A stretch of 64,000 nucleotides of DNA from Microbacterium invictum. GTDB taxonomy: Bacteria > Actinomycetota > Actinomycetes > Actinomycetales > Microbacteriaceae. The notes under the pieces were generated by a model, which saw nothing but the letters and a program-made list of their open reading frames with translations, was not told the origin of the DNA and ran no database searches. The first letter of the stretch is position 1. Every line of letters begins with the position of its first letter. The stretch lies in contig NZ_JACIFH010000001.1 of assembly GCF_014197265.1 (NCBI RefSeq), forward strand, positions 1,364,001-1,428,000, written 5' to 3'. The position numbers were made by a program, and so were the translations under genes. Shown here in pieces: positions 52,315-59,005 of this stretch.

Positions 52315-53433
52315 CTACGGCACCCGGAGCTCACGGATGGGTTCGCGGCGGCTGGCGACGAGGGCGGGCACGAGCGCGGCGATGGTCGCGGTGGCGATGG
52401 CGAGCACGCCGATGGCGAGCAAGAACACTCCCCCGGGTAAGGGGTCGCCGGTGGCGATGAGCACCCCGGCACCAACCGCAGCACCCAGCACTGTCCCGCC
52501 GACCGCGAGGATCGCAGTCTGGGTGAGGAGCAGCCCGACGATCAGCCCGCGGGTGGCGCCGAGGGCGCGGCGGCGGCCGAAGTCTTTGCGGCGCATCATG
52601 ACCAGGCCGTAGAGGATGATCGCGACGAGGGTGCCGGTGATGGCGAGCATGACGAGCACCAGGCCGCGTGAGAAGGTGCCGAGCTGCCCCTTCACGAGAG
52701 CGCGCAGCTCGGCGAGCGCTTCACTGGTCTGCACGGTGACCTTCGTGGGGTCATCGGCGGCGAGTACCGACAGTACGGCGTCGGACACGGGGGCGACCAG
52801 GTCGGGGCGTTCGGCGATCACAACGAGGATGTTGACGGTCTCTGCACCGGTCGCTTCGGGCTGCGGTACGAGCACGACCGGCTCGAACCCGGTGAGGAAG
52901 TCGGGGGTGTCGATGGTACCGGCGACGCCGTAATCGGCGCCGGTGGTGAAGGTGATCCCGCCGGCCACGTCGGGCAGGCCGAGCTGGTCGAGGGCGAGCG
53001 GCGACGCGTACGCGAGCCCGCCGGGCACCGGTGAGTCGATGGGGATACCGAGCCGGTCGAGCCCGGTGCCGTACGCGTAGCGGACCGGAACCCGGGTGCC
53101 GTCGGGGATGAGCGTATTGGTGGCATCCATCGCCAGCGAGAACGCGGCAGTCCATTCGATGCCCTCGACCCCGGCGATCCGGTCGAGCACGTCGCTGGTG
53201 ATCCCGGCGCCGTCCTCGGCACGCACCGTTATCGAACGAGTGCCGGCCGAGTCGATCGACGACAGCACGCTCTGCTCGGCGGCAACCGTGCGGCCGGTGG
53301 TGAGCATGACGGTGACGATCATCCCCGCCACCATCAGCATCGTGAGCACGGATGCCACAGGCTGCGACCGCGCCGACGCGAACGCCTCCGCGATGATGCC
53401 CGCCGCGCGCCCCGCCGCTGAACCGCCGCTCAT
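52315..53433 (-). CDS. ABC transporter permease, FtsX/MacB type
   Basis: 372 residues. First span at about 27-47 (VASVLTMLMVAGMIVTVMLTTG), a roughly 190-residue extracytoplasmic domain, then three C-terminal spans with the FtsX motif (GLVMMRRKDFGRRRALGATRGLIVGLLLTQTAIL). Its ATG overlaps the ATPase stop by four bases. With the ATPase and adaptor it forms a MacAB-like triad, which typically moves peptides or lipoproteins out of the membrane, or transmits force, rather than importing substrate. Confidence 0.87.
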   Translation of the reverse strand: MSGGSAAGRAAGIIAEAFASARSQPVASVLTMLMVAGMIVTVMLTTGRTVAAEQSVLSSIDSAGTRSITVRAEDGAGITSDVLDRIAGVEGIEWTAAFSLAMDATNTLIPDGTRVPVRYAYGTGLDRLGIPIDSPVPGGLAYASPLALDQLGLPDVAGGITFTTGADYGVAGTIDTPDFLTGFEPVVLVPQPEATGAETVNILVVIAERPDLVAPVSDAVLSVLAADDPTKVTVQTSEALAELRALVKGQLGTFSRGLVLVMLAITGTLVAIILYGLVMMRRKDFGRRRALGATRGLIVGLLLTQTAILAVGGTVLGAAVGAGVLIATGDPLPGGVFLLAIGVLAIATATIAALVPALVASRREPIRELRVP

Positions 53434-55255: not shown

Positions 55256-55855
55256 TCACCCGTTCTGGCCGAACGTCTCGAATGGATCGGCGCACGTCAG
55301 TCGGAGCTCGCTATCGTAGGACAACCCCGCCGCGTCGGAGGTGTCGTAGACGTCACCGCGAACCAGCATGTCGTCCTCATACTGCTGGTAGCTCGGCAAC
55401 TCGGGCGCATCCACACCGTGCTCGATCAAGCACTCCCGGTACCGCACCTGCGCGTCGTACTCGATTCGAGCCAGTTCAGGCGTCCACTCCATCGACTGCG
55501 GCACGTTCGGCGCCCCCTTCGCGGCGCATTCCTCGATATCCCGAACGTATACGTCGTGCTGAGCCTCTGTGGATCCCCCGCGTATGGAGTCGCCGTCGAG
55601 TGCAACGTCCCAGCCGAGTTCTTGCAGGCAAGCAGCGCTCCATACCAGGATCTCGCGCGAGCTGACCTTCCCGTCAGCATTGGTGTCGGCGGGCTGTCTC
55701 GCATCCGGGTCGGCAGACGCGGTAGGTTCCTCCGGCCCGGGCGCGGTCGCGTCCGGGCCGGAGGAGGTGCCCACCTCAGTCGCAGCGTGCGCACAGCCGC
55801 TCAAGGTGCTGAGCGAGGCCGCGACAGCGAGAGCCAGGAGCAGTCGCCGTGTCAC
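55256..55855 (-). CDS. Lipoprotein B: four-cysteine lipoprotein with an EF-hand loop
   Basis: 199 residues, GTG start. Lipobox LSGC with Cys21, a Pro/Thr/Ala-rich linker (22-55), a canonical EF-hand loop Asp57-Thr-Asn-Ala-Asp-Gly-Lys-Val-Ser-Ser-Arg-Glu68, then a domain with Cys77, 110, 142 and 188 around CLQELGWDV, RDIEECAAKG, RYRECLIEHGVDAPELPSYQQY and LTCADPFETFGQ. A clear paralogue of lipoprotein A at 58.3-59.0 kb. The GTG overlaps the stop of the small secreted protein by four bases, so translation is coupled. No named family recognised. Confidence 0.75.
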   Translation of the reverse strand: MTRRLLLALAVAASLSTLSGCAHAATEVGTSSGPDATAPGPEEPTASADPDARQPADTNADGKVSSREILVWSAACLQELGWDVALDGDSIRGGSTEAQHDVYVRDIEECAAKGAPNVPQSMEWTPELARIEYDAQVRYRECLIEHGVDAPELPSYQQYEDDMLVRGDVYDTSDAAGLSYDSELRLTCADPFETFGQNG

Positions 55856-56181
55856 GTGATCTTGGGCCCGCAGGTGCCGCGAGCAGTGTCGGACGTGTGC
55901 GGTGTGTACGCGCTCCACGAGCCGGCGCTCGCGTTGTTGCCCCGCGTCGAGTTCTTGTACCCACCCCCATAGAACGGGCGACTGTCAGCACTCGTATAGG
56001 TGTGGAGCGTGACGGTCGTGGTCGTCCAACCCGCGTTCAGACGCGTCTGAATCCCGTAGCCCTGAGACGAGCTACAGGATTGGTACCCACTTGCAGTGAC
56101 TGCTGCGGCGGGACTACTCATGGTGACCACGAGCGCAATCGCGGCGATCGCCCCGCCAATCCCAAGGTGCTTCTTGCGCAT
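55852..56181 (-). CDS. Small secreted two-cysteine protein
   Basis: 109 residues from the ATG at 56181 (GGAG 6 bases upstream). Signal peptide: basic start MRKKHLGIGG, hydrophobic core to about residue 22, and signal-peptidase site near SPAAA-V (27/28). The mature part is about 82 residues, rich in Ser, Thr, Gly, Tyr and Asn, with only two cysteines (Cys36, Cys104), which could form one disulfide bracketing the chain. No homologous family is recognised; a secreted bacteriocin-like or wall-associated peptide is possible. It has its own promoter-like element. Confidence 0.72.
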   Translation of the reverse strand: MRKKHLGIGGAIAAIALVVTMSSPAAAVTASGYQSCSSSQGYGIQTRLNAGWTTTTVTLHTYTSADSRPFYGGGYKNSTRGNNASAGSWSAYTPHTSDTARGTCGPKIT

Positions 56182-56243: not shown

Positions 56244-56273
56244 TATATACGTTCAGTCGCGCCGATTCCTGAC
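56244..56273 (-). promoter_or_regulatory. Candidate ECF-sigma promoter P3 (small secreted protein)
   Basis: GTCAGGAATC (56264-56273), 14 bases, then TATATA (56244-56249), 63 bases upstream of the start codon. Same elements and spacing as P1 and P2. Its upstream edge overlaps the palindrome at 56271-56283. Confidence 0.65.
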
Positions 56274-56283
56274 CAAATTGGTC
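56271..56283. promoter_or_regulatory. 13-bp palindrome overlapping promoter P3
   Basis: GACCAAATTGGTC is a perfect odd-centred palindrome that shares three bases with the -35 part of P3. It is absent from P1 and P2, so it may be an operator for a second regulator of the secreted-protein transcript. Confidence 0.5.
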
Positions 56284-56306
56284 GCCACAGCTCCGGATCC
56301 GCGCCG

Positions 56307-56771
56307 CTAGAGGCATCGCACGTTCGTCACCGTTCCGTAGACGTTGACGTAGTTGCCTGCGCCCGCAGTGGCCAGGACCGTGGTGGCGTTGCGAGCCTGG
56401 ACCGAGTTCACAGAGCGGGCGCCCGCGACTGACAGGACGTTGGGGAGCGCCGCAGTCGAATGGACCGCGCACGTCGCCCAGGTCAATCGCGTTCCCGTCT
56501 CGTTGTGCCCGCCAAAGGCGCAGATGAGCCCGGTGGGGCACTTGGACGACAGCCCACGCGCAGCGACGGACGAAACGGTCAACTCCATTCCAAGGTGCGG
56601 CCACACGACTGTCGCCTCGTCGACCACGATGCCACCCGGTTCGTGGGCCAGTGCGTACGCGATCGCGGGATCAACGCTGGCAGCAGCGGCTGATGTCGTC
56701 GAAGCACCGATAATGATCGCGGCACCCGCGACGACGGAGAAGAGGCGTGAGCGAAACCACGGTCTGATCAT
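56307..56771 (-). CDS. Secreted peptidase-inhibitor I36-like protein
   Basis: 154 residues, ATG at 56771. Signal peptide with hydrophobic core 11-28 and an AAAAS cleavage region. Then the actinobacterial pattern ALAHEPGGIVVDEATVVWPHLGM and an I36/crystallin-like core CPTGLICAFGGHNETGTRLTWATC (Cys78, 84, 101) with GARSVNSVQARN and a last Cys153. I36 proteins include streptomycete metalloprotease inhibitors; many homologues are uncharacterised. The start overlaps the anti-sigma-like gene's stop by four bases. Confidence 0.72.
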   Translation of the reverse strand: MIRPWFRSRLFSVVAGAAIIIGASTTSAAAASVDPAIAYALAHEPGGIVVDEATVVWPHLGMELTVSSVAARGLSSKCPTGLICAFGGHNETGTRLTWATCAVHSTAALPNVLSVAGARSVNSVQARNATTVLATAGAGNYVNVYGTVTNVRCL

Positions 56772-57781
56772 TCGGTCTCCCAAAGGGTATATGCGGTGAC
56801 GGAGCCGGCGGGCAGCCGGTCCAACGGAGCGAGACGGACATCTTCCGTGCCGACGATCCGCCCGGTCTCCCCAGAGACAAGCAGGAGGTGGCGAAAGTCA
56901 GGGTTGAGAGTCGAGTCGGCTCCGAGAACGATCACTGGGCGCCCGCCTCGATCCGTGGCTTCGCCGACGAATTCAAGGCCGGAAGCAGCGCGCAACATGT
57001 CCAGCAGGTGGTGATGCTGAGCATCGGTCATCGTCCACGAATGGAATAATCCGTCAATACCGATCATCAGCGCGGAAGCAGACGGCCTCTCGGGCACGCC
57101 GAACGCAGTGAGCACGGCGCGCATGTCGTCGTAAGACTCGCCGGGATCGTCATCGACCGGTGGCGGGTCGAACCCGCCGGGGCCGTGTGTCACATCGTGG
57201 AGGACTGTGCCGGGTTCTGGCGCCGCGAGCTGTCCTTCTGGCGGTGTCGACCCGTCGGCGAGATACGGCACTCCGGCGACCACGAGCATGCGGCCGGATC
57301 CGTCATACTCCCAGGCGAAAGTCGTGACCTCCGGAGCGATCGTCGCCGTCCGGGTACCGTCGGCGGCCTCGTCGAGATGGAGATACCAGCCCACCGCGTG
57401 CGTGCGACGTTCAATCGCAGCCGGCCCGCTGGTCGCTGTGAGGCGACGTTGCGCCATATCGATCACCTCGTCCACCCCGATCGCCAGCGGCGATACCTGC
57501 AGCGGTGCGGGCGTCAATGCCACGGCCCGTGACGGCGCCACCCATGGCCATACGAGGACGAATGCCACCAGTATGACTGCGGCTGTGAGGAGGACCTGCG
57601 CGGTGGGGGCGCGCCTCGTCGACGACACCAGAGAGTGCGACCCCGTGGCCATGATCCTGTCTCGCAGCGCGATCTCGTCGGCAGTCAGCGGGCGATCTAC
57701 CCGTTGACCGCGCAGCGGATCGAGCGAGGCGATCATCGCGTCCAGTTCGTCGTCATCGACTCGATGCTGATCGAACGTCAT
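56768..57781 (-). CDS. Membrane anti-sigma-like protein (CU044_5270-like)
   Basis: 337 residues. About 58 N-terminal cytoplasmic residues (HRVDDDELDAMIASLDPLRGQ), one membrane span (about 61-83), then about 250 extracytoplasmic residues with HAVGWYLHLDEAADG, TTFAWEYDGSGRMLVVAG and FEFVGE-like strands. This layout is that of the CU044_5270-type proteins encoded next to actinobacterial ECF sigma factors. It overlaps the sigma-factor gene by 29 bases. Role as sigma antagonist and envelope sensor is inferred from context. Confidence 0.72.
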   Translation of the reverse strand: MTFDQHRVDDDELDAMIASLDPLRGQRVDRPLTADEIALRDRIMATGSHSLVSSTRRAPTAQVLLTAAVILVAFVLVWPWVAPSRAVALTPAPLQVSPLAIGVDEVIDMAQRRLTATSGPAAIERRTHAVGWYLHLDEAADGTRTATIAPEVTTFAWEYDGSGRMLVVAGVPYLADGSTPPEGQLAAPEPGTVLHDVTHGPGGFDPPPVDDDPGESYDDMRAVLTAFGVPERPSASALMIGIDGLFHSWTMTDAQHHHLLDMLRAASGLEFVGEATDRGGRPVIVLGADSTLNPDFRHLLLVSGETGRIVGTEDVRLAPLDRLPAGSVTAYTLWETE

Positions 57782-58283
57782 ACTCCACCCCCCCGGAATG
57801 CGGCTCGTCGCTGGCAGTCGGCCACACTTCGCGCAACGCAGCGCGTGCGCGACTCGCCCGTTTCCATACCGCTGGCTCGGAGCATCCGAGCACAACCGCG
57901 GCGTCAGCCGCCGACATCTCATCCCAGATGATCAGTTGAAGAACCACCCGGTGTACCTCCGCGAGTCTGTCCCACGCTACGTCGAGATCCCTCAGGAGTG
58001 GATCGGCATCGTCTGCCACGTTCACCACGGCGTGGTCACGCAGGGCAGCGCGCTCACGTTCACCCTCACGCGCTGCACGGTTGATTGCGAACCCCGCAGC
58101 GCGAACGAGCCAACCGACGGGGTTCGGGTGATCTGCCGGGAGTTTTTCCCACGCGAGTTGGAACGCCTCCGAGCAGATGTCCTCGGCTCGCTGGTCATCG
58201 CCGACACGCCGGCGCGCGTATCGCCACACCGGTCGCCACGCATGTTCGTACAGCGCAGCGAACTCGTCGCGGGTCAGCGTCAT
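57753..58283 (-). CDS. ECF-type RNA polymerase sigma factor
   Basis: 176 residues. Region 2 at about 8-48 (FAALYEHAWRPVWRYARRRVGDDQRAEDICSEAFQLAWEKL) and region 4 at about 100-152 (DVAWDRLAEVHRVVLQLIIWDEMSAADAAVVLGCSEPAVWKRASRARAAL); no regions 1 or 3. AAGGA lies 6 bases before the ATG. It probably recognises the shared element P1-P3, including P2 at its own promoter (autoregulation). The anti-sigma-like gene overlaps its 3' end. Confidence 0.9.
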   Translation of the reverse strand: MTLTRDEFAALYEHAWRPVWRYARRRVGDDQRAEDICSEAFQLAWEKLPADHPNPVGWLVRAAGFAINRAAREGERERAALRDHAVVNVADDADPLLRDLDVAWDRLAEVHRVVLQLIIWDEMSAADAAVVLGCSEPAVWKRASRARAALREVWPTASDEPHSGGVEYDVRSASSR

Positions 58284-58972
58284 CGTGGTCCTTGTGCCGG
58301 GACCGCCATGGCCCCCTCACCATGTATATGTCGGATTCGGCAGAATCCTGACATCTGCGGCTCGAACGATTTCAGATCGGTACACCGAGCATCGCTCCTC
58401 GAGTCAGTTGTCTCCCCAGGTGTCCATCGGATCTGGGCAGGAGCGACGCACGATCGGATCATCGACATGGGTGTCGCCGCGATTGGCGCCAGTCCGTACA
58501 GGTCGATGGCTTCTGCCCGTTCGAAGAGAGCGTCGCTGAACACTTGATAGGTCGGCAACTCCGGAGGAATGAGTCCGAGTTCAACCAGGCACGCGCGAAG
58601 TCCTTGCTGCGCCGCATACTCGCTCTCGGCCAACGCCGGGGTGATGGGCGCGGCCTGCGTCGTCCCTACGCCGGCGGCCTCCGCACATTCAGCGTCATCT
58701 GCACGATAAACCTCGAGCTGCTCGGGCGGCGTCTCGACGCTGAACCCGCCGTTACCCACGTACTCGACATCCCAGCCGCGCTGCGCGAGACACTCACCCA
58801 CCGCGCGAGCCACCTCGTCGGGAGTGCGGGGCGTCATCTCTGCCCCGGGTGCCATCGAGGCTGCGGCTGACGCAGACTCCCGCGAAGCGCCAGGTGCCGG
58901 GGAACCAGCGGCACACCCGCCAACCGCGAGAATCGCGGCCAGAACCCCTCCTGCCGCAAGACGCCTGCTCAC
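58280..58972 (-). CDS. Lipoprotein A: paralogue of lipoprotein B, frameshifted near its 3' end
   Basis: 230 residues as it stands, GTG start. Lipobox VGGC with Cys20, Ala/Ser/Pro-rich linker, then CLAQRGWDVEYVG (Cys61), RADDAECAEAAG (Cys96), RACLVELGLIPPELPTYQ (Cys128), matching lipoprotein B step by step. After about residue 160 the match ends. In the -1/+2 frame the DNA reads SCPDPMDTWGDN-stop (58404), which matches LTCADPFETFGQNG of lipoprotein B. The real product was therefore probably about 189 residues; the present frame runs through promoter P2. No EF-hand is present here. Confidence 0.7.
   Translation of the reverse strand: MSRRLAAGGVLAAILAVGGCAAGSPAPGASRESASAAASMAPGAEMTPRTPDEVARAVGECLAQRGWDVEYVGNGGFSVETPPEQLEVYRADDAECAEAAGVGTTQAAPITPALAESEYAAQQGLRACLVELGLIPPELPTYQVFSDALFERAEAIDLYGLAPIAATPMSMIRSCVAPAQIRWTPGETTDSRSDARCTDLKSFEPQMSGFCRIRHIHGEGAMAVPAQGPR
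58323..58352 (-). promoter_or_regulatory. Candidate ECF-sigma promoter P2 (sigma factor gene)
   Basis: GTCAGGATTC (58343-58352), 14 bases ending CGACA, then TATACA (58323-58328), 40 bases upstream of the sigma start. The spacer and -35 also form an imperfect dyad (58329-58353). It lies inside the present lipoprotein A frame but after that gene's probable ancestral stop. Confidence 0.65.
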
Positions 58973-58975
58973 ACT

Positions 58976-59005
58976 TCTTTATGTCGAAACACGGAGAAAC
59001 CTGAC
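58976..59005 (-). promoter_or_regulatory. Candidate ECF-sigma promoter P1 (lipoprotein A)
   Basis: GTCAGGTTTC (58996-59005), 14 bases ending CGACA, then TAAAGA (58976-58981). The GTG start of lipoprotein A is only three bases further on, which suggests a leaderless transcript. Confidence 0.65.

What the first reader, a model, noticed from the sequence alone, without database searches (positions are those of the whole stretch)
56244..59005. Three identical-spacing promoter elements define a regulon for the ECF sigma factor
Seen directly: GTCAGGTTTC (58996-59005), GTCAGGATTC (58343-58352) and GTCAGGAATC (56264-56273), each followed after exactly 14 bases by TAAAGA, TATACA or TATATA. They lie upstream of lipoprotein A, the sigma factor and the small secreted protein. 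In the first two the spacer also ends CGACA. ECF sigma factors usually autoregulate and control a few linked targets (established), so these are probably its promoters (inference). I found no fourth copy upstream of the ABC triad.
Basis: partly seen in the sequence, partly recalled or inferred. Interest (0 to 1): 0.85.

Follow-up and report, generated by a model that had tools for sequence, protein, structure and literature searches.

The report
Self-regulating sigma factor's three promoters
Three matching DNA signals beside a regulatory gene in a Microbacterium-type bacterium are very probably the promoters through which that regulator switches on itself and a neighbouring set of secreted and lipid-anchored proteins; the arrangement is of a known kind, though this regulator's promoter code and targets were not found described in the papers searched.

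Summary
The reading as promoters of the ECF sigma factor is strongly supported by comparison. All 12 close sigma matches in 366 genus genomes carry GTCAGGAW just upstream. The -35 letter follows the sigma's recognition helix: W-K-R-x-S-R (20 of 20 rows) with GTCAGG, W-T-R-L-N-R (11 rows) with GTAAGG (10) or GTGAGG (1). Seven of seven strong lipoprotein-gene copies in genomes with this sigma have the site ahead of them or of their operon (one is weak, with a longer spacer); three of three copies in two genomes without a close sigma match lack it.

Refinements: the -10 core is CATATA, CATAAA or CGTATA, 16 nt after GTCAGG. A third, weaker block GGTGAG lies near the expected start. Lipoprotein A should have a leaderless mRNA from GTG 58972. 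The ABC triad needs no fourth copy, as it can be transcribed from site 3. The putative anti-sigma may carry an RseB/LolA-like domain (weak fold match). A bacteriocin/immunity role for the targets is a guess. There are no transcript data.

The parts
58976..59005 (-). site 1, promoter of lipoprotein A: -35 GTCAGG 59005-59000, -10 CATAAA 58983-58978
58323..58352 (-). site 2, promoter of the sigma operon: GATGTCAGGAT, -10 CATATA 58330-58325, then GGTGAG at 58321-58316
   Evidence: counterpart upstream of all 12 close sigma matches
56244..56273 (-). site 3, promoter of the small secreted protein operon: -10 CGTATA 56251-56246
   Evidence: same position in G122, G216, G217
58280..58972 (-). lipoprotein A (lipA), GTG start 58972; predicted leaderless; C-terminus appears frameshifted against its homologues
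57753..58283 (-). ECF sigma factor, 176 aa
   Evidence: PF04542 and PF08281 above their cut-offs
56768..57781 (-). putative membrane anti-sigma factor, 337 aa, overlapping the sigma gene by 29 nt; the part after about residue 90 is perhaps RseB/LolA-like
   Evidence: NF038083 at 32.5 bits, cut-off 100; model and fold comparison; membrane span inferred from the sequence, no predictor run
56307..56771 (-). secreted protein, weakly like peptidase inhibitor family I36, third gene of the sigma operon
   Evidence: PF03995 at 17.1 bits, cut-off 21.1; start
55852..56181 (-). small secreted protein (109 aa from ATG 56181), no family match above a cut-off
55256..55855 (-). lipoprotein B (lipB), paralogue of lipA, GTG start overlapping the previous stop codon
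54077..55201 (-). adaptor with a peptidoglycan-binding domain and a biotinyl-lipoyl-like stretch (the latter below cut-off)
   Evidence: PF01471, PF13533
53430..54080 (-). ABC ATPase; TIGR03608 and FtsE models tie at 155.5 bits, both below cut-off
52315..53433 (-). FtsX-like permease
   Evidence: PF02687

Best explanation
The three sites are promoters read by the ECF sigma factor encoded at 57753-58283. The -35 element is (GA)TGTCAGGAW, read by sigma region 4; the -10 core is C(A/G)T-A-(T/A)-A, 16 nt after GTCAGG. The sigma factor activates its own operon (sigma, putative anti-sigma, I36-like protein), the operon of the small secreted protein with lipoprotein B and the ABC triad, and lipoprotein A. 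It is presumably held at the membrane by the co-encoded membrane protein until an extracytoplasmic signal releases it (inferred). The regulon appears local. Lipoprotein A should be translated from a leaderless mRNA.
For: Rarity and clustering. GTCAGGAW upstream of all 12 sigma matches with E < 1e-30 in the genus: 11 at 66 to 188 nt before the matched region and the second G122 copy; on a tree of 56 sigma factors those 11 form one clade (support 99/99), two of them with identical sigma sequence. A scan of 366 genomes for TGTCAGGA-N15-CATNW gave 63 hits (reversed control 5); 36 are near-identical copies of one sequence, and 10 of the other 27 lie directly upstream of a sigma match; the pattern missed 3 of the 12 close ones (G191, G216, G217). 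Covariation: W-K-R-x-S-R helix with GTCAGG in 20 of 20 rows (18 of the 56-row set, 2 of another genus; 4 of the 18 were found only on looking up to 1.5 kb upstream), W-T-R-L-N-R with GTAAGG in 10 of 11. Targets: 7 of 7 strong lipB-type places in genomes with the sigma, 0 of 3 in two genomes whose best sigma matches are only 4.5e-11 and 1.1e-6. Geometry as reported for ECF41, TGTCACA-n16-CGTC (passages of PMC3426412).
Against: No transcript, start-site or binding data. The -10 varies between subclades (CATATA, CATTTC, AACCTT, CACAGC). One G122 site has a 17-nt spacer and scores 11.3 to 12.0, within the range of shuffled sequence, whose best score in 20 shuffles was 16.3. GTCAGGA occurs with other helices in L016, L018 and L049, and GTAAGG with other helices in L019 and L051. 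17 of the 27 non-redundant hits were not examined. Only 3 lipoprotein places make up the natural control. The anti-sigma assignment rests on position, architecture and a sub-threshold model match.
Confidence: 0.87

Rival explanations
1. The repeats are an operator for another regulator (repressor or activator) lying over ordinary housekeeping promoters whose -10 boxes are the TATA-like parts.
For: TATACA and TATATA resemble a housekeeping -10; some relatives hold inverted pairs of the element (L063, L067, L069), as an operator might; a third block GGTGAG sits near the expected start site.
Against: The element and its letter follow the sigma factor's tree and recognition helix; the -10 is not TATA-like in sister groups; in the three inverted pairs each half scores as an outward-facing promoter and their distances differ; Pfam and NCBIfam named no other DNA-binding protein among the nine cluster proteins scanned, though a regulator encoded elsewhere is not excluded.
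Confidence: 0.07
2. The sites are promoters of a different, paralogous ECF sigma factor of the same genome.
For: Two further sigma matches at E <= 0.001 exist in this genome, and cross-recognition among ECFs is known (recalled).
Against: The element stands before this sigma's orthologues, and is absent before the same lipoprotein genes in G266 and G354, which have no close match to it; 27 of 56 sigma rows had neither GTCAGGAW nor GTAAGGWT in the 250 nt upstream, four of which are explained by an upstream gene.
Confidence: 0.05
3. Chance repeats.
For: Short elements in a GC-rich genome.
Against: None in 100 shuffles; three of four genome hits fall in 2.8 kb; counterparts in relatives.
Confidence: 0.005

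Closest known systems
ECF41 sigma factors and their promoter TGTCACA-n16-CGTC (PMC3426412, passages seen)
   Same: -35 beginning TGTCA, 16-nt spacer, -10 of the C-G-T type, targets next to the sigma gene.
   Different: TGTCAGG in place of TGTCACA; the window's sigma is 176 aa without the large C-terminal extension; targets are lipoproteins and a small secreted protein.
MibX/MibW and PspX, cluster-situated ECF regulators of lantibiotics in actinomycetes (PMC6001450, passages seen)
   Same: An ECF sigma beside genes for an exported product and a transporter, with a membrane anti-sigma (MibW).
   Different: No lantibiotic enzymes were named here by Pfam or NCBIfam; the secreted product is a 109-aa protein of unknown function.
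RseA/RseB-RpoE and MucA/MucB-AlgU envelope-stress systems (PMC8103513 passages; PMC7400510 search listing only)
   Same: Extracytoplasmic control of an ECF; the closest solved folds to the membrane protein's outer part are RseB and MucB (weak).
   Different: Here the sensor-like domain would be fused to the membrane anti-sigma in one protein; the match is weak and no protease cascade was examined.
Lactococcin 972-type bacteriocin export ABC (TIGR03608)
   Same: Top NCBIfam model for the ATPase, tied with FtsE.
   Different: 155.5 bits against a cut-off of 254.85; the small secreted protein matches no bacteriocin model.

Membership tests
ECF sigma factor | sigma regions 2 and 4 as the only sigma domains | tested here: met
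   PF04542 35.1 bits (cut-off 24) at 11-75 and PF08281 36.4 bits (cut-off 25.7) at 100-150 of 176 aa; no other sigma region reported above its cut-off
ECF sigma factor | co-encoded membrane anti-sigma factor | tested here: inconclusive
   Overlapping 337-aa downstream gene with a low-confidence helix at 63-76; NF038083 at 32.5 of 100 bits; no binding test
ECF sigma factor | positive autoregulation from a bipartite promoter | tested here: inconclusive
   Conserved, covarying element before all 12 close matches; no transcription data
ECF41 | large C-terminal extension | tested here: not met
   The protein ends 26 residues after the region 4 match
ECF41 | -35 TGTCACA | tested here: not met
   TGTCAGG or GGTCAGG in the clade
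ECF-controlled lantibiotic cluster (MibX/PspX type) | lantibiotic modification enzymes in the cluster | tested here: not met
   None named by Pfam or NCBIfam among the nine cluster proteins
Lactococcin 972-type system | ABC ATPase above the TIGR03608 cut-off and a lactococcin 972 family peptide | tested here: not met
   155.5 of 254.85 bits; small secreted protein matches no model above cut-off
RseB/LolA superfamily (outer part of the putative anti-sigma) | fold of RseB, MucB, LolA, LprG | tested here: inconclusive

The most novel reading that the evidence does not exclude
A one-protein fusion of an anti-sigma factor with an RseB/LolA-like extracytoplasmic sensor controls, through an ECF clade with its own promoter code (TGTCAGGAW-N14-CRTATA plus a third block GGTGAG at the start site), a repeated set of small-secreted-protein plus lipoprotein pairs that act as a bacteriocin-like toxin and its lipoprotein immunity, exported or guarded by the ABC triad; the cell senses the exported protein and amplifies its own operons.
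Probability: 0.2. Interest if true: 0.7.

Novelty: new member of a known kind. Interest (0 to 1): 0.48.

Why it matters
Here promoter, recognition helix and target genes of an ECF sigma factor can be read together across genomes, giving a testable code: the third base of the -35 (C or A) against K-R-x-S or T-R-x-N in region 4. The targets are unnamed secreted and lipid-anchored proteins that occur as pairs, three in one genome, so the regulon is a handle on what they do.

Tried and rejected
Rejected: chance; a housekeeping promoter plus operator, as less likely; membership in ECF41 (no C-terminal extension, different -35); a lantibiotic cluster (no such enzymes named). The first 60 or so residues of the putative anti-sigma modelled poorly (most under pLDDT 50), so no anti-sigma domain could be shown. 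The model of the small secreted protein was useless (mean pLDDT 39.4). A tblastn search of the plasmid collection with the small secreted protein gave no match; a protein search found only 4 relatives, the window's own protein among them. Paper searches: ECF sigma factor with CU044_5270 (0 papers); with Microbacterium (9 papers, none naming this system in the title or the abstract start shown); TGTCAGG with ECF (51 papers, the 10 listed unrelated by title). They found no description of this promoter, which is no proof of absence. The family-wide search (398 genomes, 4 with a match at E <= 1e-20) added one other genus, G477, with two paralogues.

Rows dropped and limits. The tree used 56 loci, without the second G122 copy, G252 and G477. 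In one search, 25 lipoprotein places were listed; the counts of 7 and 3 use the 10 with E at most 3.1e-14; the 15 weaker rows had no site scoring over 12. Searches scored at most 9 or 8 candidates a genome; for G266 and G354 every candidate was scored. G354 is a fragmented assembly (about 1100 contigs). In the two-mismatch search the own genome had 4 hits with 1 in the reversed control; G266 and G354 each had only a copy of the widely shared sequence. The 36 near-identical hits were set apart by their letters only; that locus was not examined. The frame of the G252 sigma match departs from the family within region 4, so its helix was not counted.

Full report
Observation. The three elements exist as described, on the minus strand (sequence). 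In the genome (G000, one contig, 3,580,260 bases) the looser GTCAGG-N18-TANANA gave 4 matches, three of them here, and 0 for the reversed control. A two-mismatch search for TGTCAGGA-N15-CATATA gave 4 matches in G000 (reversed control 1): sites 2 and 3, one at 758226 that belongs to a widely shared sequence, and one at 1951033; site 1 has three mismatches and is not in that list. So the regulon, judged by sequence, is local.

Cluster. All the genes named run on the minus strand. Site 1 precedes lipoprotein A (58972-58280). Site 2 precedes the sigma gene (58283-57753), an overlapping 337-aa protein (57781-56768) and an I36-like secreted protein (56771-56307, overlapping by ATGA). Site 3 precedes the small secreted protein (56181-55852), lipoprotein B (start GTG 55855, overlapping the stop codon) and, after 54 nt, the adaptor, ATPase and FtsX-like permease, which overlap one another. 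That would explain why no fourth site precedes the ABC triad: it can be transcribed from site 3.

Relatives of the sigma factor. Of 366 genomes of the genus, 104 have a match at E <= 1e-12; 12 matches (own included, two in G122) have E < 1e-30. The genus is Microbacterium, inferred from named records whose contig lengths equal those of G216, G217 and G010. Fifteen regions were fetched. Upstream of all 12 stands GTCAGGAW, mostly as GATGTCAGGAT, followed 14 nt later by CAT or CGT. Information content over 17 sites peaks at TGTCAGGAT and at C-A/G-T 22-24 nt from the first G. The sites in relatives were taken for GTCAGG or GTAAGG alone, except the L061 small-protein site, which a pattern with the -10 found; the three window sites also came with their -10.

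Genus-wide test. TGTCAGGA-N15-CATNW gave 63 hits in 58 of 366 genomes; the reversed control gave 5. Thirty-six hits are near-identical copies of one sequence. Of the other 27, ten lie directly upstream of a sigma match listed: G000, G010, G086, G122 (two), G248, G252, G338, G343, G368. G252 had not been chosen beforehand; its sigma reading frame departs from the family within region 4. The pattern missed three close ones (G191, G216, G217), and the other 17 hits were not examined.

Covariation. On a tree of 56 sigma factors, 11 rows with the site form one clade (99/99), and a separate clade of 11 (100/99) has GTAAGG in 10 rows and GTGAGG in one. Region 4 reads W-K-R-x-S-R in the first and W-T-R-L-N-R in the second. 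A further group with W-K-R-x-S-R (L044, L046, L050, L053, L054, L058, L059) lies outside the first clade. Three of these have GTCAGG within 100 nt upstream; in the other four an upstream gene ends about 10-20 nt (L046, L050, L053) or under 100 nt (L058) before the sigma gene, and GATGTCAGGAT stands 1.1-1.2 kb upstream, near the beginning of that gene's frame; that look was made after the first count. Two paralogues in another genus (G477) with W-K-R-L-S-R have GATGTCAGGAT 86 and 92 nt upstream of the match. In all, 20 of 20 rows with that helix have GTCAGG. The converse is not strict: L016, L018 and L049 have GTCAGGA with other helices, and L019 and L051 have GTAAGG with other helices.

Targets. 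A matrix built without the locus under test found the element before small secreted protein genes in G122 (29.5 and 28.0, and 11.3 for a third with a 17-nt spacer) and before the one in G216 and G217 (26.4 in L061; L062 was scored with L061's identical sites still in the matrix) (genes). Shuffled window sequence reached 16.3 at best in 20 one-strand shuffles, so the third G122 site rests on its position, not its score. Lipoprotein B has ten strong places in the genus: own genome 2, G122 3, G216 1, G217 1, G354 2, G266 1. The first seven have the site ahead of them or of their operon; the last three have none. With every candidate scored, the best sigma matches of G266 and G354 are 4.5e-11 and 1.1e-6, neither with the helix, and a two-mismatch motif search finds in each only a copy of the shared sequence. 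G266 still has the order FtsX-like gene, small secreted protein, lipoprotein, so the target module exists without the sigma and then lacks the site. This natural control is small.

Lipoprotein A. Its -10 ends at 58978, and the only in-frame ATG, GTG or TTG before the lipobox is GTG 58972, so a transcript from site 1 would start at or next to the start codon: a leaderless mRNA, common in actinobacteria (recalled). The end of the gene appears frameshifted: the C-terminal pattern of its relatives (C, then D-P, then T-W-G or T-F-G) lies in another frame ending at 58404, whereas the open frame runs on over site 2 to 58280.

Precedent. MibX/MibW and PspX control lantibiotic clusters in actinomycetes, with the product or its precursor triggering release of the sigma factor (passages of PMC6001450). 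The paired small secreted protein and lipoprotein, three pairs in G122, suggest a toxin and immunity pair by analogy; nothing here tests that.

Noticed in passing
58280-58480: Lipoprotein A appears frameshifted near its 3' end: the C-terminal pattern of its homologues lies in another frame ending at 58404, and the open frame runs on across the sigma promoter to overlap the sigma start codon.
   Followed up: partly
58321-58316 and sites in related loci: A third conserved block, GGTGAG, near the expected transcription start in 17 of 31 sites; function unknown.
   Followed up: partly
L063 9421, L067 9904, L069 9289: Second, outward-facing copies of the element upstream of the sigma gene (scores 21.3, 27.3, 24.0), suggesting divergent sigma-dependent promoters; the genes they face were not identified.
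   Followed up: partly
L007-L010, L047, L048, L052, L055-L057, L060: In the GTAAGG sister clade an inverted copy (A/T)TCCTTAC stands 42-43 nt upstream of the -35 in 11 of 11 loci, so a conserved divergent promoter is likely there.
   Followed up: no
L064 6501-7457, 12712-13699, 13875-14932: Three copies of the small secreted protein plus lipoprotein pair around one sigma locus in G122, on both strands.
   Followed up: partly
56307-56771: I36-inhibitor-like secreted protein as third gene of the sigma operon; relatives of it follow the sigma and anti-sigma genes in L061-L064, L073 and L074.
   Followed up: no
L168: The G252 sigma match, which has the promoter element upstream, leaves the family's reading frame within region 4.
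   Followed up: no
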